DNA from: Weeksella massiliensis
GTDB taxonomy: Bacteria > Bacteroidota > Bacteroidia > Flavobacteriales > Weeksellaceae
DNA length: 64,000 bases
Direction of reading: 5' to 3'
Assembly (NCBI GenBank): GCA_000751595.1
Contig: CCMH01000016.1
Location: 1-64,000 of the forward strand
The stretch's first letter is position 1. The number at the start of each line of letters is the position of its first letter. The notes below the pieces were generated by a model that ran no database searches, had not been told where the DNA came from, and worked only from the letters and a program-made list of their open reading frames with translations. Positions 1,530-20,047 of this stretch are shown here, in pieces. The position numbers and the translations under genes were made by a program.

Positions 1530-2585
1530 ATGATAAAAAAATTTATTGTACTGAGCATGCTGTGTCTTTATGGTATGCAAGTAAATGCGCAAAGAATTTC
1601 GATTGACCTGAACAATGAAAAGGTGTACGATGAAAAAGTGAGTCCGAAAGTGAAAGAAGAAATCGAAGGATTTTCTACACAAATCAAAGATATTGTGAAT
1701 GAAGAGAAAGTGAGAATGGATGAAGAAATTGCAAAAGTAAATCTGCAATTATCGGAAAAGAAAATCACGGAAATCCAAGCAGACGAAGAAAAAAAAGCTA
1801 TTGCCGAACGTTATGCAGAACAAATCAATACCAAAATTACTTCTTTAGGATTTGACTTGGACGATGTGATAAAAAAGCAAGTGAATTACGCGATCATGGG
1901 AAAAACAGAACCTTTGAGCGAAAAAACAATTTCTAATCTGAAAAAGAAATATCGTCCGGTAAACGAACTCAACGGTTATATGTCTTGGGGAATTATGAGT
2001 TTTGCTAACAATGACAACGAAAAACTCAACCAACATCTTGGCTTCTCGAGCAACTTAGAAGCTGGTTTGGTGTATCATCGACAGTTCAACCGTACGTCTC
2101 CTTTCGAACTATTGACAGGTTTGGTCATGTCTTGGCGAACAATGCGTTTTGATGATGATCGTTACCTCACAAGAGAAGCGGACGGAAATGTAGATTTAAT
2201 AGCTTCGACCGAATCGTTGGACAAAAGTAAATTACGCGCAACTTACCTTATGGTGCCTATCGGTGTAAAATACCACATGACAAGTAAATTGAAAACCATT
2301 GGCGATGATTTTCAATACCGAAACATCAACAAAGGACTTGCGGTAGGATTTAATCTTTATGGTGGCGCGAAAATTTCTAACAATAATATCGTGAAAAGCG
2401 ACCTGATAAAACAACGAGATAAAGACACCAACTACAACGTGAATCCTTTTGTTTACGGAGCTCAAGTAACGCTTACCTTAAATTCGGTTAATATTTTTGC
2501 TCGTCAAGATTTCAGTTCATATTTCAAAGATAATACTTTCGATGACCGTAGAATGCTTCAATTTGGTTTGAATTTCGGTTTTTAG
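1530..2585 (+). CDS. Outer-membrane beta-barrel protein with N-terminal helical region
   Basis: This 351-residue protein begins with a signal peptide ending near NAQ, so Gln is the probable first mature residue. Residues about 30-130 are Lys/Glu-rich and look like helical or coiled-coil periplasmic sequence. From about 140 onward alternating aromatic/hydrophobic strands are visible (NGYMSWGIMSFANN, LEAGLVYHRQF, ATYLMVPIGVKYHM), and the chain ends LNFGF with a C-terminal Phe, typical of outer-membrane barrels. It lies 41 bp after the putative anti-sigma gene on the same strand, suggesting a sigma/anti-sigma/envelope-protein unit. I do not recognise a named family beyond this. A strong terminator follows. 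Confidence 0.65.
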   Translation: MIKKFIVLSMLCLYGMQVNAQRISIDLNNEKVYDEKVSPKVKEEIEGFSTQIKDIVNEEKVRMDEEIAKVNLQLSEKKITEIQADEEKKAIAERYAEQINTKITSLGFDLDDVIKKQVNYAIMGKTEPLSEKTISNLKKKYRPVNELNGYMSWGIMSFANNDNEKLNQHLGFSSNLEAGLVYHRQFNRTSPFELLTGLVMSWRTMRFDDDRYLTREADGNVDLIASTESLDKSKLRATYLMVPIGVKYHMTSKLKTIGDDFQYRNINKGLAVGFNLYGGAKISNNNIVKSDLIKQRDKDTNYNVNPFVYGAQVTLTLNSVNIFARQDFSSYFKDNTFDDRRMLQFGLNFGF

Positions 2586-5417: not shown

Positions 5418-7577
5418 ATGATGAAAAATATTTTGACCAAATTTTGTTTGGTTTCTGCGAGCTTATATGCTTACGGACAAACAATTACCGTAGATAAGAT
5501 TTACACAGGTCGGTACTCTGAGAAAGGATTATACAGCATTTCGCCGATGCAAAATGGAGAAGATTACACAACGCTAACTTCGCAAGGAATCCTGAAAAAT
5601 GCTTACTCGAAGGTGGCAAACAATTCTTCTGCGACCTATGAAGTTACCGGAAAATACGATAATTACACTTATTCTAAAGACGAAAGGTACATCCTTTTAC
5701 AAAGCAATACACAGCCAATTTACCGAAGATCGTTTACTGCAACGTTCGAAGTGTATGATAAACAAAGTCAGAAAAAAGTAAAAGTTTTCGGAGGAAAACC
5801 TATTCAAGAACCGCTTTTATCGCCCGACAACAGCAAGGTTGCTTTTGTGTACGAAAATAATCTATACTACCAGAATCTCGATAATTTACAAACAACTCAA
5901 ATTACGCAAGACGGAGAAAAAAATAAAATTATCAATGGGATAAATGATTGGGTTTGGGAAGAAGAGTTTGGATTTGTTCGCAATTTCGATTGGAATAGTG
6001 ACGCTTCTGCTTTGGCTTTTGTTCGTTTGGATGAGCAAAAAGTAAAAGAAGTTTTCTTACCGATTTATTACAACAACTTGTATCCGCAAGAAATGCGTTT
6101 CAAATACCCGAAAGCGGGAGAGGATAATTCATTAGCAAGTTTGCACGTATATCAATTATCGGATAAAAAAACAACGAATGTTGATCTTTCTTCGGTAGAA
6201 AATTATTATCTCCCAAAAATAAAATTTACTCCTCAAAAAGATGTGCTTTCGGTAGTGAGCAGTAATCGTCATCAGAACAAAGTCGATATTTCGCTGTATT
6301 CGTTAAAAGACAATAAAATCCAAAAATTATTTACCGAAACCGATAATGCATGGATAGAAACCGATCAACTCGACTTAGAGTTTTTGGCCGACAATTCTTT
6401 TATTTGGGCATCTGAGCGCGACGGAAATCGTCATTATTATTGGTATGATGCCAAAGGAAAACTCCTCAATCAAATTACCAAAGGAGATTGGGAAGTGACG
6501 GATTTTTATGGTTTTGATGAAAAAAGCAAAACGTTGTATTTTCAGGCAAATGCTTTCAACGGAAAAAGAACTTCTACCGAAAGACAAATTTATTCGGTTG
6601 GTCTGAATGGGAAAAACCTAAAAATGCTTTCGAAAGAAGCCGGAACAAACTCGGCTCGTTTCAGTGCAGATTATCGTTATTTCATTCAAACTTTTTCATC
6701 GGTAAATCAACCAAAAATCATTGCACTTATCGAAACCAAAAGCGGTAAAAACTTAGGAACAATTATCGATAACTCTTCGGTGAAAAACGTGTATGCATCC
6801 GACAATGCGGGTAGCAAAGAACTTTTTACTTTGACAGCCGCTAATGGACAAGAACTCAATGCGTATATCATCAAACCAAAAGATTTCGATCCTACCAAAA
6901 AATACCCTGTTCTTATGTATCAATACAGTGGGCCGGGCTCGCAGACAATCGCAAATACATGGCACAACGCCAACGATCAGTGGCACATGCTTTTGGCACA
7001 GAAAGGTTATTTGGTGGTGGCTGTCGATGGTCGAGGAACTGGATTTAGAGGAGCGAAATTCAAAAAACAAACCTATTTACAATTAGGAAAATACGAAGTA
7101 GAAGACCAGATTGCGTCGGCAAAAGCTTTGGCAAAATTGCCGTATGTAGATGCTTCGCGTATCGGAATTTGGGGTTGGAGTTATGGTGGTTTTATGGCAT
7201 CGAATGTATTGTTCAAAGGCAATGATACCTTCAAGATGGCTATTGCTGTTGCTCCGGTGACCAATTGGCGTTTCTATGACAGTGTATACACAGAGCGTTT
7301 TATGAGAACTCCGCAAGAAAATGCTGATGGTTATGATGATAACTCACCGATAAATCATGTGGATAAATTCCAAAAAGGAAACTTACTTTTGGTGCATGGA
7401 ACGGCCGATGACAATGTGCATGTACAGAACACGTACGAGCTTGCAGAAGCTTTGACGCAAGCCAATAAACAATTTAGAATGCAAATTTATACCGATAAAA
7501 ATCATGGAATTTATGGTGGAAAAACGCGTATACAATTATATGATATGATGACCAACTATATCCTCGAAAACTTATGA
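5418..7577 (+). CDS. Dipeptidyl peptidase IV-type serine peptidase (S9B)
   Basis: This 719-residue exported protein removes N-terminal dipeptides, typically X-Pro or X-Ala, from peptides. A signal peptide ends near YAYGQ, leaving Gln first. Residues about 35-480 form the DPP-IV N-terminal beta-propeller and include NDWVWEEEFG (Glu181-183), the double-Glu motif that anchors the substrate amino terminus. The C-terminal alpha/beta hydrolase domain carries GWSYGG (nucleophile Ser588), HGTADDN (Asp664) and NHG (His696). Length matches the bacterial family. Its stop overlaps the start of the first POT transporter by 4 bp (ATGA), tying dipeptide release to uptake. No type IX C-terminal signal is visible, so it is probably periplasmic. 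Confidence 0.95.
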   Translation: MMKNILTKFCLVSASLYAYGQTITVDKIYTGRYSEKGLYSISPMQNGEDYTTLTSQGILKNAYSKVANNSSATYEVTGKYDNYTYSKDERYILLQSNTQPIYRRSFTATFEVYDKQSQKKVKVFGGKPIQEPLLSPDNSKVAFVYENNLYYQNLDNLQTTQITQDGEKNKIINGINDWVWEEEFGFVRNFDWNSDASALAFVRLDEQKVKEVFLPIYYNNLYPQEMRFKYPKAGEDNSLASLHVYQLSDKKTTNVDLSSVENYYLPKIKFTPQKDVLSVVSSNRHQNKVDISLYSLKDNKIQKLFTETDNAWIETDQLDLEFLADNSFIWASERDGNRHYYWYDAKGKLLNQITKGDWEVTDFYGFDEKSKTLYFQANAFNGKRTSTERQIYSVGLNGKNLKMLSKEAGTNSARFSADYRYFIQTFSSVNQPKIIALIETKSGKNLGTIIDNSSVKNVYASDNAGSKELFTLTAANGQELNAYIIKPKDFDPTKKYPVLMYQYSGPGSQTIANTWHNANDQWHMLLAQKGYLVVAVDGRGTGFRGAKFKKQTYLQLGKYEVEDQIASAKALAKLPYVDASRIGIWGWSYGGFMASNVLFKGNDTFKMAIAVAPVTNWRFYDSVYTERFMRTPQENADGYDDNSPINHVDKFQKGNLLLVHGTADDNVHVQNTYELAEALTQANKQFRMQIYTDKNHGIYGGKTRIQLYDMMTNYILENL

Positions 7578-9070
7578 GTTCTTCGCACAAAAACTCACCC
7601 CTTACTTTAGAAGAAATTCAAAATTTCGAAGGGAAATATCCAAAACAACTTTGGTCGCTTTTCACGATAGAAATGTGGGAGCGTTTTTGTTTCTATGGAA
7701 TGCGTGGCGTTTTGGTCATCTTCATGACCGACCAATTGGGTTTGTTCGAGAAAGATGCCAACCTGAAATACGGAACAATACAGGCATTTATCTATGCTTT
7801 TACTTTCATCGGCGGAATCTTTGCTGATAAAATTTTAGGATTCAAAAAATCGCTTGTTTTCGGTGGATTGGTTATGGTTTTGGGAAACCTCATCATTGCG
7901 TACGATCCTCATAGTTTTTTCTACATAGGAATTACTTGCTCGATTATCGGAACGGGATTCTTCAAACCCAACGTTTCTTCGATGGTTGGCGAACTCTACA
8001 AAGAAGGCGATGTTCGGCGAGATGCTGGTTACGGAATGTTCTATGCCGGGATCAATATCGGTGGATTTTTGGGCGGCGCGCTGTGTATTTATTTGGGTAA
8101 AAACTATTCGTGGAACTTATGTTTCTTGGCTGCAGCAATTGTGATGGTTATTGGTCTGATAACGTATTTCTTTACCAGAAAATCCTTGGCGCCGATTGGG
8201 AATACTCCACTCGAAACTCAAACTAAAAAACAACGAACCACCAAAGAAATTTTGGTTTATGTGGGAGCTATTGTCATCCTACCAATCATTTACTTTTTAA
8301 TACACCGACAAGATCTTACCGATTTTTTCATGTATTCTATCGGAGTTTTGGCATTATTATATTTAGGATATGAAGTCACAAAACTGAACACAAGTTACAA
8401 GAAAAAAATAACAGCCGCTTTTATTTTCATCGTTATGTATTTGATATTCAACATCATTTACGAACAAAGTGGTGGATCACTTTCTTTGTTTGCCAAAGAC
8501 AATTTGGTCGATAACTTATTGTTTTTCAAGATAGACCCTAACATTATCAACAATAGTTCGAATTCGTTTTTCATCATCATTTTCAGTCCATTAGTTGGTT
8601 TAGCGTGGATTGCACTTGCCAAAAGAAAACTCGAACCCAATACTGTCCTGAAATTCGGAATCGGTTTCCTTTTCCTTGCTTTAGGATTTTTCCTTTTCTA
8701 TTCATTGCGCTTTTTTGCCAACGATGCCGGAAAATCTTCCCTCAACCTCTTTACCTTTACATGGTTAGTTATCACTTTGGGTGAACTTTGCCTTGGACCA
8801 ATCGGAATGTCTATTATTACCAAACTTTCTCCTCAACGTCTTTTTGGGATGATGATGGGAATGTGGTTTTTGGCCAGCTCTTTCGGACAATTCTTCGCCG
8901 GAAAAATTGGCGCAGGCATGTCAGAATCCAATACCGGAGGAACCCTAATGTCGAAACTAATTGCGTATACCGACGGCTATTTACATTTATCTATTTATGC
9001 GCTTATTGCAGGCGTACTCTTAATAGCTTTTTCTCCCTTGATCAGAAAATTAATGCAAGACGTAAAATAA
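7574..9070 (+). CDS. POT/PTR2 family proton-dependent oligopeptide transporter (copy 1)
   Basis: This 498-residue inner-membrane protein of the major facilitator superfamily imports di- and tripeptides with protons. The family ExxERFxxYG motif appears as EMWERFCFYG near residue 32, and the second signature as FYAGINIGGFLGG in TM5. Further family motifs include FFKPNVSSMVGELY. About a dozen or more hydrophobic helices span the chain. The ATG lies within the last codons of the DPP-IV gene (4-bp overlap), so the two are translationally coupled. One ATCCTACC motif copy falls at 8276-8283, encoding Ile-Leu-Pro with the CTA codon. Confidence 0.95.
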   Translation: MSSSHKNSPLTLEEIQNFEGKYPKQLWSLFTIEMWERFCFYGMRGVLVIFMTDQLGLFEKDANLKYGTIQAFIYAFTFIGGIFADKILGFKKSLVFGGLVMVLGNLIIAYDPHSFFYIGITCSIIGTGFFKPNVSSMVGELYKEGDVRRDAGYGMFYAGINIGGFLGGALCIYLGKNYSWNLCFLAAAIVMVIGLITYFFTRKSLAPIGNTPLETQTKKQRTTKEILVYVGAIVILPIIYFLIHRQDLTDFFMYSIGVLALLYLGYEVTKLNTSYKKKITAAFIFIVMYLIFNIIYEQSGGSLSLFAKDNLVDNLLFFKIDPNIINNSSNSFFIIIFSPLVGLAWIALAKRKLEPNTVLKFGIGFLFLALGFFLFYSLRFFANDAGKSSLNLFTFTWLVITLGELCLGPIGMSIITKLSPQRLFGMMMGMWFLASSFGQFFAGKIGAGMSESNTGGTLMSKLIAYTDGYLHLSIYALIAGVLLIAFSPLIRKLMQDVK

Positions 9071-9097
9071 TCAAATCAATAAAATAAATTTAACATA

Positions 9098-10684
9098 ATG
9101 AATGAGGATAAGAATTTAATTAGCCATTTACACAAACTGGGAATGGACGAGAAAATGGTTAACGGCCACCCAGCTGGTTTATTTGTGTTATTCTTCACCG
9201 AGATGTGGGAACGCTTTAGTTATTATGGGATGCGCGCTTTGCTCACCCTTTTTCTTATTAGTACCATTGCAGAAGGCGGATGGGAATGGACACGTGAAGA
9301 TGCCATGCATCTCTACGGTTGGTACACCGGACTTGTTTATCTTACTCCACTGATTGGAGGAATGATTGCAGACCGATTAACAGGAGCCAAAAAAGCAATC
9401 TTGCTTGGAGCGCTCATCATGACACTCGGACACGCTTCAATGGCCCTCGAAGGTGTAGCCAACTCCTTTTTCTATATCGGTTTGGCGCTGATGATTTTAG
9501 GAAACGGACTTTTCAAACCAAATATTTCGTCTATGGTCGGAAACTTATATCCTGACAATAGCCCGAAAAAAGATGCCGGTTACACAATTTTCTACATGGG
9601 AATCAATGCAGGTGCTTTTATCGGAATGATGCTTTGTGGCTATATCGGTGAAAAAGTTGGATGGCATTATGGTTTCGGTCTTGCTGGTATTTTTATGTTT
9701 TTTGGTATGATGCAATTCTACTTCGGACAAAAAATATTCGGAATCACCGGAGAATCTCCTGCCGAAGTTAAAAAATTCCACGAACAAAAAATTGCTAACC
9801 ACGAAGAAGAAGCTGAAGTTCCTACACCAGCCAATGTTGTTCGCGATCGATTAATAGTTATTGTTGTACTAATGTTAGCAAGTATCGTTTTCTTCCTTGC
9901 CTTTGAGCAAGCCGGAGGTTCGATGTCTATTTTCGCCAAAGATTATACGCAACGCGTACTCGACGGCCACGCCGCAACCACCTTCAAATGGGTCGATGCG
10001 ATTCTCACAATTCTACCAATCGCTATTGTTACCGTAGTTCTGAGCGCATTAGCAAAGAAAATATACAAAGAATATCCATTAACTATTATTTTCACAGGTA
10101 TCTCTTTTGCCATTATCTGGGCATTAGGTTTATGGAAAATTTGGAGAGAATTCGGAGCAGAACAAACCGAAGTTGCTGCATCGTGGTTCCAAATCCTAAA
10201 CTCATTATTCATCATTACTTTAGCCTCTAGCTTTGGAAAGTTCTGGGAAAAAGTTTGGAATCCTTCAGGACCTATAAAATTCGCCTTAGGACTTTTATTA
10301 GTCGGAATTGGTTTTGCGATTTTAGCCTACGGTTCAATGTCAATTCCGCAAGGTGCCAAAACAGCTTCTGTTAGCATGCTTTGGTTGATTATCGCCTACT
10401 TCTTCCATACCTCAGGAGAATTGTGTTTATCTCCGGTAGGATTATCGTATGTATCAAAACTATCTCCTAAAAAATTACTTGGTTTATTATTCGGTTGTTG
10501 GTTCGGAGCTTCGGCGATTGCCAATTTCATTGCAGGACTTTTAGGTTCAACGATTGATAAAATCACGGCAGAACATTCGATGTCATTTTTCTTCATGATT
10601 TTTGCCATCGTACCAGCTATTACCGCCTTGATATTGGTTTTACTCAATCCGATGTTGAAACGCATGATGCACGGAATTAACTAA
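9098..10684 (+). CDS. POT/PTR2 family oligopeptide transporter (copy 2)
   Basis: This 528-residue protein has EMWERFSYYG, LFKPNISSMVGNLY and IFYMGINAGAFIG, all POT signatures that coordinate proton coupling and peptide binding. It begins 27 bp after copy 1 and is probably co-transcribed with it. It is most like copy 4 (12543-14297): both contain GHPSG or GHPAG followed by LFVLFFTEMWERF at the N terminus, and the tract encoding LCLSPVGLSYVSKL is shared at DNA level. A charged cytoplasmic loop rich in Glu separates the two six-helix halves. A terminator follows. Confidence 0.95.
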   Translation: MNEDKNLISHLHKLGMDEKMVNGHPAGLFVLFFTEMWERFSYYGMRALLTLFLISTIAEGGWEWTREDAMHLYGWYTGLVYLTPLIGGMIADRLTGAKKAILLGALIMTLGHASMALEGVANSFFYIGLALMILGNGLFKPNISSMVGNLYPDNSPKKDAGYTIFYMGINAGAFIGMMLCGYIGEKVGWHYGFGLAGIFMFFGMMQFYFGQKIFGITGESPAEVKKFHEQKIANHEEEAEVPTPANVVRDRLIVIVVLMLASIVFFLAFEQAGGSMSIFAKDYTQRVLDGHAATTFKWVDAILTILPIAIVTVVLSALAKKIYKEYPLTIIFTGISFAIIWALGLWKIWREFGAEQTEVAASWFQILNSLFIITLASSFGKFWEKVWNPSGPIKFALGLLLVGIGFAILAYGSMSIPQGAKTASVSMLWLIIAYFFHTSGELCLSPVGLSYVSKLSPKKLLGLLFGCWFGASAIANFIAGLLGSTIDKITAEHSMSFFFMIFAIVPAITALILVLLNPMLKRMMHGIN

Positions 10685-10700
10685 TCAAAATACTTCTCAC

Positions 10701-10730
10701 AAAAAAGCCTCTTTCGAAGAGGCTTTTTTT
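10701..10730 (+). terminator. Intrinsic terminator after POT copy 2
   Basis: A perfect 13-bp stem (AAAAAAGCCTCTT, loop TCG, AAGAGGCTTTTTT) with a T run closes the DPP-IV/POT1/POT2 unit 17 bp after the stop codon. Confidence 0.88.
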
Positions 10731-10782
10731 GTATAACCGCTAAAATTTCACTTAATTTGGCAGCATTAACATCAATAAAAAT

Positions 10783-12423
10783 ATGGAAGAAAAAAAAACT
10801 ATTTGGGGGACCTTAGGTTCTTTCAATAATAACTTCTGGACAGCGAGCTTCATGGAACTTATGGAACGCTGGGCTTGGTACGGAATCTATACCCTTTTCG
10901 GTTTATATTTGGTCGGATCAACCGACGATGGAGCTTTAGGGTTTAATCATATCCAAAAAGGAAGCATCATGGGAAATATTGTAGGAATTCTCTACTTTCT
11001 TCCACTAATTTTTGGAGTTATTGCCGATAGAATTGGCTACAAACTATCGCTGATTATCGCGTATGTCATCATGATTATCGGGTATTATTTGCTCGGAGAA
11101 GTTACTTCGTACTGGAGTGTGTATATGGTTTTCTTGTTGGTTGCGGTAGGAGCAGCTTTCTTCAAACCTGTAGCCTCAGCTATTGTAGCGAGAAATACCA
11201 ACGAAGTTACCGGAACCATGGGATTCGGAATTTTTTATATGATGGTGAATATCGGAGGGTTTATCGGACCTTCTATGTCGTCCTACCTAAGAACAACTTA
11301 TGGTTGGAAGTTAATCTTCATCCAGGCTGCTATCGTAATCGGAATCAATCTTTTAGTTGTATTATTTTATTATAAAGAACCGAAAGTAGAAAGGCCAAAA
11401 GAATCCATCGGGAAAGCGATAAAAGATTCTATTCTCAATATTTTCTTAGCCTTAAAAGATAAAAAACTAAGTATTCTTTTAGTCTTGATGATTGGCTTCT
11501 GGACGATGTTTAATCAACTCTTCAATACATTACCGAACTTCATCGAAGATTGGGTAAATTCGAGTGTTATCAGTCATTGGATCAATACGAACTTACCAAG
11601 TTTAGCCAATACATTTACCGAAAACGGACAAGTAAAACCCGAATGGTTTACCAATATCGACTCGTTTATGATTATCATGCTACAAGTGAGCATCTCGTTT
11701 TTGGTTATCAAAATGAGCCATTTGCACGCCATGATTCGTGGGGCAATTATTGCCTCTATCGGGGTTGGATTAACGTTCTATACGCACAATGTTTGGTTTA
11801 CAATTATTGGTACGATGATTTTCTCGATTGGAGAAATGATGTCGAGTCCAACTTTGTCCTCTTTCATTGCGCTGATTACCCCAAAAGGAAAAGAAGGATT
11901 ATACCAAGGAACCTATTTCTTACCAGTGGCAGCGAGTTATTTCGTTACCAAATTTATCTCTGGAGATCTTTACCAAGCTTGGTCGGATAAACTTTCTCTT
12001 CTACAACGAGAAATGAAACAACGCAACATCGATATGCCCAATGTGGTGAGCAAAGAAGAATACATAGAATCGGGTGCAAAAGCCCTCAACATGCCCATTA
12101 CGGATTTCGAAAATACCTTCGGGCTCAAGGAAAACAATTTAGATTGGACTTCGATCGGACAAAAAGTAAATGAGTTCGCTTTGCAAAAAGGAATCGATGT
12201 AAGTCATCTACAATTGCCTTTCACTAAAAATGAATATTTTACCTTGGCCGAACAAAAATTAGGAATGGATCATTGGCAAGTAGTCGATATGTTGTGGACG
12301 ACTTATCAACCCAATAAAATTTGGATGGTTATTTTTGGGATAGGAATTTTCTCGGTAATTTCTTTAACAATCTACGATCGTTTAGTCATTAAACCAACCG
12401 AAAAAAATAGTCAAACAAACTAA
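10783..12423 (+). CDS. Divergent POT-like MFS transporter (copy 3)
   Basis: This 546-residue membrane protein belongs to the POT-like MFS group but departs from its three neighbours. The N-terminal signature reads ELMERWAWYG instead of EMWERFxxYG, and the TM5 motif is IFYMMVNIGGFIGPSMS. A hydrophilic stretch of roughly 110 residues (about 395-505) is inserted before the final transmembrane helix. It has its own terminators on both sides, so it is a separate transcription unit between copies 2 and 4. The substrate may differ from di/tripeptides; that is an inference from the changed motif. Confidence 0.85.
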   Translation: MEEKKTIWGTLGSFNNNFWTASFMELMERWAWYGIYTLFGLYLVGSTDDGALGFNHIQKGSIMGNIVGILYFLPLIFGVIADRIGYKLSLIIAYVIMIIGYYLLGEVTSYWSVYMVFLLVAVGAAFFKPVASAIVARNTNEVTGTMGFGIFYMMVNIGGFIGPSMSSYLRTTYGWKLIFIQAAIVIGINLLVVLFYYKEPKVERPKESIGKAIKDSILNIFLALKDKKLSILLVLMIGFWTMFNQLFNTLPNFIEDWVNSSVISHWINTNLPSLANTFTENGQVKPEWFTNIDSFMIIMLQVSISFLVIKMSHLHAMIRGAIIASIGVGLTFYTHNVWFTIIGTMIFSIGEMMSSPTLSSFIALITPKGKEGLYQGTYFLPVAASYFVTKFISGDLYQAWSDKLSLLQREMKQRNIDMPNVVSKEEYIESGAKALNMPITDFENTFGLKENNLDWTSIGQKVNEFALQKGIDVSHLQLPFTKNEYFTLAEQKLGMDHWQVVDMLWTTYQPNKIWMVIFGIGIFSVISLTIYDRLVIKPTEKNSQTN

Positions 12424-12452
12424 AAAGTAAATAGAATTTATTCATAATCGAC

Positions 12453-12490
12453 AAATAACTCACATGTTTTTTCATGTGAGTTATTTTTTT
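12453..12490 (+). terminator. Intrinsic terminator after POT copy 3
   Basis: A 14-bp perfect stem (AAATAACTCACATG, six-T loop, CATGTGAGTTATTT) is followed by a T run, 29 bp after the stop codon. Confidence 0.85.
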
Positions 12491-12542
12491 ACAAAAAATC
12501 TTCCTATTTTCGAACATTCAAAAAAAATTTAGAACGAATAAA

Positions 12543-14297
12543 ATGAATGTTGCTAAAGAACAGAACTTTTTCGACTCGAAAGTTCTCGGTCATCCCTCGG
12601 GCTTATTTGTCCTTTTCTTCACCGAAATGTGGGAGCGCTTCTCTTTCTACGGGATGCGTGTTTTATTAATACAATTTTTAACTGCTGCTGTTTTAGGATC
12701 TAATCCTGGTCATGGTTGGTCTATCGAAAGTGCTACAGCCCTTTATGGTACCTACGCAATGTTGCTCTATATCACCCCTATTTTTGGTGGGATTATTGCC
12801 GATAAATATATCGGTTATCGCTGGGCTGTTGTGGTAGGGTCGATCATCATGACGCTCGGACACGCTTTTATGGCTTTCGAAGGAATTAATTTTCTCTATC
12901 TCGGACTTGCTTGTTTGGTGATTGGTACTGGTTTCTTCAAACCCAATATGACGTCTATCCTATCAGAAATGTACAAAAATTTCCCAGAGAAAAAAGATGG
13001 TGCTTATACCATTTTCTATATGGGAGTGAATGCAGGTGCGTTTTTTGGTATGATGTTGTGCGGATACTTGGCAGAAAAAGTAGGCTGGCATTGGGGCTTC
13101 GGATTAGCCGGAATCTTTATGCTTTTAGGAACTTTACAGTTCTGGTTTGCAAAACCACTTTTTGGTCATATCGGCGAAGTACCTTCTAAAAACAAAGAAG
13201 AAGACAAAGACGATATGCCACTCTATGGCGAAGACGAAAAACCTAATCCATTTACTACCGTGGAAATCATCTTGATTGCGATCATGACGGTGTGCGGTTT
13301 GGGGTATGCTTTTAGTGATCCTTTACGAGAAATTGCCGGTATAGATTTGTTCCATGCCTTGTCGATTGGCAAAGTTGCCGGACAAAATGTTGTGGCACTT
13401 TTGGCCTTGGTTCTTTTCTTTTTTGTCGTAATCAAACGTTTGGCTAAATACACCAAAATTGTTCGAGATCGAATGATTGCCGTAATTATCTTCGCGATTT
13501 TTGTGGTTTTCTTTTGGATGTCTTTCGAACAAGGAGCATCGTCTTTAGTGATCTTTGCACGCGATAATATCGATCGTTCTTTAGAAGGAAATACAAAAAC
13601 TATTTTCGATATTGTCAATGTTTGTCTAACGATTATTCCTCTTATCATCATAACCTATGTTTTGGTAAAATTAAAAATCAAAACTTGGTCGGTAATTCCT
13701 TTTTCTAATATCGTTTTAGCGATTTGTTTCTTAGGAATTTGGGGAGTAGCAATTTGGATGTTGAACCGTGAGTTACAATCAGAAACTTCAGAAATTACGG
13801 TTTCTTTCTTCAGTACTTTGAACTCTTTTTTCATCATTACCTTAGCTTCTTTTGTATCGAAAATTTGGGATTCTAAATACAATCCCCCAGCAACCGTTAA
13901 ATACGGAATGGGCTTGATTATTATGGCTTTAGGATTCGGAACTTTATATATCGGGACGCACGGTGTTGCAGACGGCGTGAAAATTAGTTTCATGTTCCTT
14001 GTCGTAGCTTACCTTTTCCACACCTTGGGAGAACTCTGTTTATCTCCGGTAGGATTATCGTATGTGTCGAAATTAGTACCGGCAAGAATGATTGCTTTCA
14101 TGTTCGGAATGTGGTATTTAGCAGTCGCAATCGGAAATAAATTAGCGGCCTTATTAGGAGGACAAATCGAAAATATTACCAAACAATATTCTCTATCGAC
14201 ATTCTTCCTTATCTTTACGGTTGTGCCAATCGTAGCCGGATTATTGGTTATGGCCCTCAATCCATTGTTAAAAAGATTAATGCACGGCATCAAATAA
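12543..14297 (+). CDS. POT/PTR2 family oligopeptide transporter (copy 4)
   Basis: This 584-residue protein carries EMWERFSFYG, FFKPNMTSILSEMY and IFYMGVNAGAFFG, so it is a standard proton-coupled peptide transporter. It is the longest of the four because of an extended central cytoplasmic/TM region (about 215-300) with two extra hydrophobic segments. It resembles copy 2 most closely, suggesting tandem duplication. The upstream region contains TATTTTCG, one base from the TAnnTTTG consensus. The exported thioredoxin gene follows after 11 bp and is probably in the same operon. Confidence 0.95.
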   Translation: MNVAKEQNFFDSKVLGHPSGLFVLFFTEMWERFSFYGMRVLLIQFLTAAVLGSNPGHGWSIESATALYGTYAMLLYITPIFGGIIADKYIGYRWAVVVGSIIMTLGHAFMAFEGINFLYLGLACLVIGTGFFKPNMTSILSEMYKNFPEKKDGAYTIFYMGVNAGAFFGMMLCGYLAEKVGWHWGFGLAGIFMLLGTLQFWFAKPLFGHIGEVPSKNKEEDKDDMPLYGEDEKPNPFTTVEIILIAIMTVCGLGYAFSDPLREIAGIDLFHALSIGKVAGQNVVALLALVLFFFVVIKRLAKYTKIVRDRMIAVIIFAIFVVFFWMSFEQGASSLVIFARDNIDRSLEGNTKTIFDIVNVCLTIIPLIIITYVLVKLKIKTWSVIPFSNIVLAICFLGIWGVAIWMLNRELQSETSEITVSFFSTLNSFFIITLASFVSKIWDSKYNPPATVKYGMGLIIMALGFGTLYIGTHGVADGVKISFMFLVVAYLFHTLGELCLSPVGLSYVSKLVPARMIAFMFGMWYLAVAIGNKLAALLGGQIENITKQYSLSTFFLIFTVVPIVAGLLVMALNPLLKRLMHGIK

Positions 14298-19027: not shown

Positions 19028-20047
19028 CTATTTTTTGATAGTCACTTCGTAAATTTTGTTCCAAAGTTTACCTGTTACCAACATATTTTCTCCTTTGAAG
19101 GCAATACCATTCAAAACATCAGTATCTGCAGCTTGTTCAGCTTTGAAGGCTTCAAAATTCATTTTTCCGATCACAGCTCCACTTGAGGGATCCACAGCTA
19201 CAATAATATTTTGTTGATAAACATTTATATACAACAAACCATTATGGTATTCCAACTCATTGAGGTTGCTGTAAGCTTGTTTATCATCAACCGCTTGTAT
19301 TGTTCTTTTATAATTAAAATCTTTATCAAAGAAATGGATTTTCTGTGAACCATCAGTAATGACCAATTCTTGTCCCATTGTGGTAATTCCCCAACCTTCT
19401 CTAATTTCACCGGGCATGGTAATTTCTCGCAATAACTTAAAATTCTGATCATATTCATAAATCAATCTGTTTTGCCAAGTCAGTTGATAAATCACCCCAT
19501 TTAATTCGGTTATTCCTTCGCCAAAAGAAGTTTTTTCTACTTCACCGGTTAACTCCTCGGTTGAGCTTCCTAAACGATATTTCACCAATCTCGACTGTCC
19601 GGTAAGTCCCGTACCTTCGAAAATAAAACCATCTTTATAATAAAAACCTTGGGTAAAATCTTGAGGATTGTGCGGATAGGTATTCACCAAATCGTACCCC
19701 CATTCTTGCGCGGGTTGATCTGCAAAAACTAAGATATTAAATTCGCGTGTAGCTGATAATTCCGAACCATTAAAAAATTTCACGCTCACATTATGTTGTC
19801 CTAAACCAACATTTTCTAAGGTTATTTTTCCTGGGTTTGGAAAATCTTTTCCGTCAATTTCTACTTTTACTTCGCTAATATTGGTCAATCCTTCTATCGA
19901 AATTTCTAGAGAATCCCCTATTTTATACTGTTTTTCTTCTATAGCAGAAACTTGTTGCGTGATTATCGGGTTATTAACCGATGCATCGTCTTTACAAGCT
20001 GTAACACTTAATACTAAAAATCCGAAAAGGATATAAAAACGTTTCAT
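19028..20047 (-). CDS. Glutaminyl-peptide cyclotransferase lipoprotein (type I, beta-propeller)
   Basis: This 339-residue protein converts N-terminal Gln of exported proteins to pyroglutamate. The signal peptide ends in a lipobox (VTAC, Cys at about 18), so it is a lipoprotein. Residues about 30-108 look like an Ig-like or beta-sandwich domain. The PF05096 glutamine cyclotransferase propeller follows, with NTYPHNPQDFTQGFYYKDG, FEGTGLTGQSRL, FGEGITEL, LTWQNRLIYEYD and GWGITT. Every signal-peptidase-I protein in this window begins with Gln after the predicted cleavage site, so it has local substrates. It converges on the terminator at 18973. Confidence 0.9.
   Translation of the reverse strand: MKRFYILFGFLVLSVTACKDDASVNNPIITQQVSAIEEKQYKIGDSLEISIEGLTNISEVKVEIDGKDFPNPGKITLENVGLGQHNVSVKFFNGSELSATREFNILVFADQPAQEWGYDLVNTYPHNPQDFTQGFYYKDGFIFEGTGLTGQSRLVKYRLGSSTEELTGEVEKTSFGEGITELNGVIYQLTWQNRLIYEYDQNFKLLREITMPGEIREGWGITTMGQELVITDGSQKIHFFDKDFNYKRTIQAVDDKQAYSNLNELEYHNGLLYINVYQQNIIVAVDPSSGAVIGKMNFEAFKAEQAADTDVLNGIAFKGENMLVTGKLWNKIYEVTIKK

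What the first reader, a model, noticed from the sequence alone, without database searches (positions are those of the whole stretch)
19028..20047. Glutaminyl cyclase lipoprotein together with Gln-first mature exported proteins
All six proteins here with a predicted signal peptidase I site have Gln right after it: the barrel protein (1530), DPP-IV (5418), thioredoxin (14309), DUF2141 (16803), M1 peptidase (41496) and SprA (48015). This matches the Bacteroidetes Q-rule linking signal cleavage to pyroglutamate formation. The cyclase here is a beta-propeller (type I) lipoprotein, unlike the zinc type II enzymes studied in Porphyromonas.
Basis: partly seen in the sequence, partly recalled or inferred. 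Interest (0 to 1): 0.5.

Follow-up and report, generated by a model that had tools for sequence, protein, structure and literature searches.

The report
Glutamine-capping enzyme for exported proteins
This gene encodes the plant-type enzyme that most likely caps the front end of exported proteins in this bacterium; the link between such enzymes and a leading glutamine is already published, but some relatives appear to keep the glutamine without a recognised enzyme, which makes the reason for the rule testable.

Summary
19028-20047(-) encodes a type I (beta-propeller) glutaminyl cyclase (QC) lipoprotein with the four catalytic residues of papaya QC. A signal-peptide predictor blind to position +1 gave Gln at +1 in 68 of 100 predicted signal peptidase I substrates from 34% of the genome (62 of 94 without the window), against 4.1% after similar motifs inside proteins and 3 of 28 in E. 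coli. No second type I and no type II QC was found in this genome. Sampled genomes of its order agree (type I in 54 of 54, type II in 0 of 54).

This is the published "Bacteroidetes Q-rule"; plant-type lipoprotein QCs in Flavobacteriia are already reported (PMC5837995). So: a new member of a known kind.

Added here: (1) QCs of three families, this one included, carry an unnamed Ig-like domain between lipid anchor and propeller; (2) this QC and its Faecalibacter relative start C-K-D-D, resembling a surface-export signal, but few other relatives do; (3) QC and Q-rule are not tightly coupled: two genera of this family lack both QC types, and six Bacteroidota families sampled with neither type show Gln at +1 in 23 of 47 candidates. 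The last point is the one worth following.

The parts
19028..20047 (-). Type I glutaminyl cyclase lipoprotein, 339 aa
   Evidence: PF05096 E 1.4e-76; only PF05096 match in the genome; PDB 3nol E 2.8e-42; propeller model Z 24.7, rmsd 2.7, 212 aligned to 3mbr
19997..20047 (-). Signal peptide, residues 1-17
   Evidence: sequence and predictor call SPII
19985..19996 (-). Lipidated Cys18 and the following K-D-D (residues 18-21), resembling a lipoprotein export signal
   Evidence: CKDD shared with Faecalibacter rhinopitheci L259; the three SusD matches of the genome start CSDDYL, CSDDRL, CMDNYL; signal described in PMC5080379 (passages)
19718..19969 (-). Ig-like beta-sandwich domain, about residues 27-110, between anchor and propeller
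   Evidence: model of residues 27-113: mean pLDDT 80.4; best Z 7.3, many Ig/PKD/FnIII-like folds; no Pfam match at E <= 1; aligns across families f1-f3
19031..19714 (-). Propeller catalytic domain, residues 112-339
19649..19651 (-). Gln133 = papaya QC Gln24
   Evidence: alignment to 2faw
19517..19519 (-). Glu177 = papaya QC Glu69 (proton shuttle)
   Evidence: invariant in 14 QCs
19259..19261 (-). Asn263 = papaya QC Asn155
   Evidence: invariant in 14 QCs
19067..19069 (-). Lys327 = papaya QC Lys225
   Evidence: invariant in 14 QCs
1530..2585 (+). Likely substrate: barrel protein, ...MQVNA|QRIS
   Evidence: PF13568
5418..7577 (+). Possible substrate: DPP-IV, ...YAYG|QTIT
   Evidence: by eye only, not called; PF00930 and PF00326
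14309..14758 (+). Likely substrate: thioredoxin-like, ...SISQA|QSVN
   Evidence: PF13098
16803..17231 (+). Likely substrate: DUF2141, ...SLVFA|QTQP
   Evidence: PF09912
41496..43343 (+). Likely substrate: M1 peptidase, ...YSNA|QRKG
   Evidence: PF01433
48015..55070 (-). Likely substrate: SprA, ...NVANA|QEQD
   Evidence: PF14349 E 3.2e-159

Best explanation
The gene encodes the organism's single recognised glutaminyl cyclase. Exported proteins are cut by signal peptidase I just before a glutamine (shown statistically). The lipid-anchored propeller enzyme, held off the membrane by an Ig-like domain (inferred), then cyclises that glutamine to pyroglutamate in the periplasm (inferred from family and catalytic residues). 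The blocked N-terminus protects periplasmic, outer-membrane and secreted proteins from aminopeptidases (inferred from P. gingivalis work). In Flavobacteriales a type I propeller enzyme does the job that a zinc type II enzyme does in Porphyromonas.
For: Type I family and fold; four catalytic residues present; lipobox; Gln at +1 in 68 of 100 SPI candidates and 62 of 94 outside the window, against 255 of 6214 background and 3 of 28 in E. coli; no other PF05096 and no type II QC found in the genome; type I in 54 of 54 and type II in 0 of 54 sampled genomes of the order; type I in 112 of 119 of the family. Published: pyroglutamate seen by mass spectrometry in five Bacteroidetes, Cytophaga hutchinsonii among them (PMC5837995, abstract and section 11 part 3); PgQC essential and protein-stabilising (PMC10653852, abstract and passages).
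Against: No direct evidence of pyroglutamate or activity in this organism. Two genera of the same family (3 of 3 and 4 of 4 sampled genomes) have no type I and no type II match, so QC is not universal in the family. A type I genome, G059, shows only 1 of 7 Gln at +1, and six families without a recognised QC show 23 of 47, so QC presence and the Q-rule look separable. C-K-D-D suggests possible surface export, an odd place for an enzyme serving periplasmic proteins.
Confidence: 0.87

Rival explanations
1. The enzyme sits on the outer face of the outer membrane and acts mainly on surface and secreted proteins or peptides, not on the general periplasmic pool.
For: CKDD directly after the lipid anchor, conserved with Faecalibacter at 53% overall identity while only 2 of the first 17 residues agree; 8 of 51 lipoproteins called in the sampled genome have an acidic pair at +3 to +6, and the three SusD matches start C-[SM]-D-[DN]; BamD of this genome lacks it.
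Against: Acidic pair at +3 to +6 in 4 of 12 QCs of the family, 3 of 21 in f2, 2 of 4 in f3 (read), so not conserved. Surface lipoproteins presumably still pass the periplasm (inference). [quoted passage not shown]
Confidence: 0.2
2. Glutamine at +1 is kept for signal peptidase recognition or other reasons; cyclisation is secondary or spontaneous, and the QC serves other peptides.
For: High Gln at +1 in six families without a recognised QC (23 of 47; profile searches); no QC in two genera of the own family; QC present with little Gln at +1 in G059.
Against: PgQC is essential through its activity, and Gln-to-Asn changes lower protein abundance (PMC10653852, abstract and passages). Samples per genome are small (4 to 11), and a diverged or third cyclase is not excluded.
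Confidence: 0.1
3. The +1 Gln is a predictor artefact.
For: The predictor is home-made and includes false positives; in the small E. coli control another position, +4, had Gln in 6 of 28.
Against: It does not read +1; the Gln share rises with stricter thresholds (62 of 94 to 8 of 10); E. coli +1 is 3 of 28.
Confidence: 0.02

Closest known systems
Plant-type (type I) QCs of Flavobacteriia in the Bacteroidetes Q-rule (PMC5837995)
   Same: Fold family, catalytic residues, lipoprotein form, lineage, high +1 Gln
   Different: A term search of that paper's main text found no 'immunoglobulin' or 'N-terminal domain'; the Ig-like domain and the C-K-D-D start were not met in the parts read
Type I QCs of papaya, Zymomonas, Xanthomonas, Myxococcus (2faw/2iwa, 3nol, 3mbr, 3nok)
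   Same: Propeller and active site
   Different: The match starts at about residue 112; anchor and Ig-like domain are extra
Type II PgQC of Porphyromonas (PMC7948796 and PMC10653852, passages)
   Same: Presumed task; lipoprotein
   Different: Unrelated zinc fold; not found in this genome

Membership tests
Type I glutaminyl cyclase | PF05096 homology over the propeller | tested here: met
   257.7 bits against cut-off 22.3
Type I glutaminyl cyclase | Propeller matching solved type I QCs | tested here: met
   Z 22.2 to 24.7 to five QC entries; model weak at residues 212-262
Type I glutaminyl cyclase | Catalytic Q/E24, E69, N155, K225 (papaya numbering) | tested here: met
   roles from PMC5837995 (section 11 part 3)
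Type I glutaminyl cyclase | Glutaminyl cyclase activity | not testable with these tools
   needs an enzyme assay
Type II glutaminyl cyclase | M28-like zinc fold with QC-specific similarity | tested here: not met
   this protein is PF05096; the genome's best hit to a type II QC is E 4.6e-4; 0 of 119 family genomes at E <= 1e-25
Bacteroidetes Q-rule organism | Majority of SPI substrates have Gln at +1 | tested here: met
   68 of 100 in 34% of the genome; 62 of 94 without the window
Bacteroidetes Q-rule organism | Mature N-termini are pyroglutamate | not testable with these tools
   needs N-terminal proteomics
LES surface lipoprotein | Acidic pair near +3 to +6 after a polar or basic residue | tested here: inconclusive
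   C-K-D-D present, but K is at +2 and not at the optimal +3 (PMC5080379, passages), and the motif is missing in most relatives

The most novel reading that the evidence does not exclude
Gln-first export does not depend on either known glutaminyl cyclase: several Bacteroidota lineages keep the Q-rule with neither enzyme, using an unrecognised third cyclase or none, and two genera of this window's own family have no QC of either type, a natural experiment on why the rule exists.
Probability: 0.35. Interest if true: 0.7.

Novelty: new member of a known kind. Interest (0 to 1): 0.33.

Why it matters
The gene is a clear, single-copy type I QC in a genome where no type II enzyme was found, so deleting its counterpart in a laboratory Flavobacterium would test whether QC is needed outside Porphyromonas. 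The QC-less sister genera and the QC-less families with Gln at +1 could show whether the glutamine is there to be cyclised at all. Inhibitors being developed against zinc QCs (PMC7948796, passages; PMC12702893, search listing) would not be expected to hit this enzyme class (inference).

Tried and rejected
Type II QC in the genome: seven M28 matches. Two of the seven (L002, L006) were compared with solved structures and match aminopeptidases best; the other five were not. A type II reference, confirmed against solved bacterial QCs, finds only E 4.6e-4 in the genome. Rejected.

Surface signal as a family trait: rejected, since few relatives have it.

Hidden QC in 'neither' genomes: of 392 genomes, 110 have a type I match (each best E 1.1e-73 or lower), 123 a type II match at E <= 1e-25, and 168 neither. 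Four genomes with weak PF05096 matches (G009, G017, G190, G278; E 7.6e-5 to 8.2e-4) were not counted as type I; G009 and G278 fall among the 168. A relaxed single-protein search covered 80 of the 168; 41 had something at E <= 0.1, best E 5.8e-7. Profile searches covered 26. Type II profile: 23 of 26 have a match at E <= 0.01, best 4.4e-13, none in G005, G075 and G052. Most matches are short M28-like stretches, but some span most of the profile (for example G070, G019, G035; G132 in an 804-aa frame), so a diverged type II QC is not excluded there. Of the six genomes high in Gln, five have such weak matches and G005 has none. Type I profile: best E 0.034.

In Q-rule counts, candidates with two or more further membrane segments were dropped (19 of 119 in the own genome).

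Named relatives: the genome-contig scan gave one locus. The Ig-like domain's best Z of 7.3 may mean only a common arrangement. The tree does not show a single origin of that domain: f1 falls apart from f2 and f3 under midpoint rooting.

Literature: searches, in an open-licence library; their listings showed no paper on the Ig-like domain or on Q-rule lineages without QC, which is not proof of absence. My notebook says 55 genomes for the order; the recount is 54 (9 of f1, 45 of f2).

Full report
What is there. The open frame 19028-20047 on the minus strand encodes 339 residues matching PF05096 and solved type I glutaminyl cyclases. Residues equivalent to papaya Q24, E69, N155 and K225 are Q133, E177, N263 and K327 (read from the alignment); E, N and K are invariant in 14 diverse type I QCs. 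An AlphaFold model from two sequences (mean pLDDT 69.0, weak at 212-262) matches five QC entries at Z 22.2-24.7 over residues 112-339. The start, MKRFYILFGFLVLSVTA|CKDD, is a lipoprotein signal. Neighbours are a DUF2480 protein, LpxB and a CpsB/CapC-like protein; nothing in them suggests an operon with QC (inference).

Is Gln at +1 real? I wrote a predictor that uses only residues before the cleavage site. On 864 kb (the window plus 40 stretches from 7 of 54 contigs; 34% of 2.56 Mb) it kept 100 SPI candidates, 68 with Gln at +1. No other position from -6 to +9 exceeds 16%. In 200 kb of E. coli K-12 it gave 3 of 28 at +1 (and 6 of 28 at +4). Inside proteins of this genome, A-X-A-like motifs are followed by Gln in 255 of 6214 cases. 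Excluding the window: 62 of 94, and 8 of 10 at the strictest threshold. This agrees with the published mean of 71% for Bacteroidetes (PMC5837995, section 11 part 2).

Which cyclase? The genome has one PF05096 match and seven M28 matches. Two of the seven were compared with solved structures and are nearest to aminopeptidases; a confirmed type II QC finds nothing better than E 4.6e-4 in the genome. Across 392 genomes of the phylum, 110 have strong type I and 123 type II, 9 have both (Fisher odds ratio 0.13, not corrected for kinship). In the window's order 54 of 54 have type I and 0 of 54 type II; that none of the order lacks type I is inferred from the kinship order of a capped no-match list. 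This repeats, on another genome set, the published split (574 and 507 species, 63 with both; PMC5837995).

Architecture. In families f1, f2 and f3 the distance from the lipidated Cys to the propeller is 98-111 residues in the 34 of 37 QCs where my motif measured it (12 of 12 f1, 18 of 21 f2, 4 of 4 f3). In 14 QCs of seven other families it is 22-48; for one of these (L012) the Cys may not be a lipobox, and L011, L015 and L098 could not be measured. The extra part aligns across f1-f3, has no Pfam match, and folds alone as an Ig-like sandwich (mean pLDDT 80.4; best Z 7.3). I infer a spacer or docking arm. In the propeller tree of 53 rows, f1 (100/100), f2 (100/97), f3, f8, f25 and f48 each hold together, but the two f33 rows do not.

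Where does it sit? PMC5837995 (section 21) says the membrane of other Bacteroidetes QCs cannot be predicted but considers the inner membrane likely. Here C-K-D-D resembles a lipoprotein export signal (PMC5080379, passages read). The only named relative found, Faecalibacter rhinopitheci, has C-K-D-D too. But the acidic pair is in only 4 of 12 QCs of the family, 3 of 21 in f2 and 2 of 4 in f3 (read). I give surface display 0.2.

How tight is the coupling? In 4 x 20 kb per genome: five type I genomes, pooled 18 of 36 Gln at +1; five type II genomes 18 of 48; ten with neither 24 of 62. So the pooled groups differ little. Among the ten, G003 6/11, G124 5/10, G005 3/7, G132 3/7, G147 4/8 and G001 2/4 are high (23 of 47; Fisher p 0.0009 against E. 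coli; this grouping was made after seeing the data), while G075 0/3, G052 0/3, G112 0/5 and G030 1/4 are low. Against a simple link: type I G059 1/7, type II G073 0/8 and G043 3/14; by eye, several non-Gln calls in G043 and G073 look like false positives or misplaced sites. Profile searches found no convincing QC in the six high 'neither' genomes: no type I match below E 0.03, and weak M28-like type II matches in five of six (G132 the strongest, E 4.4e-13), none in G005. A diverged QC is therefore not excluded. PMC5837995 reports high Q-values for Chloroherpeton and Ignavibacterium, with no QC named for them in the parts read; that G005 may be Chloroherpeton rests on my recall of its genome size and is unverified.

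In the own family, 112 of 119 genomes have type I; the seven without are two whole genera, 3 of 3 and 4 of 4 sampled. Type II gives nothing at E <= 1e-25 in any of the 119 (the tool warns that an empty search needs a positive control: a single-protein search with one of the same rows matched 123 of 392 genomes).

Verdict. A confirmed, well-explained member of a published system. The useful new lead is the loose coupling between cyclase and Gln-first export.

Noticed in passing
G405, G425, G441 (genus g193) and G413, G432, G445, G455 (genus g200): Two genera of the window's family have no type I match and no type II match at E <= 1e-25, two single-contig genomes among them; whether they keep Gln at +1 is unknown.
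   Followed up: partly
L153-L164, L173-L184 (G003, G124, G005, G132, G147, G001): Six families without a recognised QC show Gln at +1 in 23 of 47 predicted SPI substrates.
   Followed up: partly
L221-L224 (G059, family f25): A type I QC genome with little Gln at +1 (1 of 7): the enzyme alone may not bring the rule.
   Followed up: partly
L080, L083 and genomes G478, G482, G490, G498: Neighbouring pairs of type I QC genes in some family members.
   Followed up: no
window 7574-14297: Next to DPP-IV lie four similar long membrane proteins that look like POT peptide transporters (motif recalled, not tested), suggesting a peptide-use cluster.
   Followed up: no
L098 (G041, family f6): A type I QC with an apparent membrane-anchor start in place of a lipobox, yet with an N-terminal region that aligns with the extra domain.
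   Followed up: no
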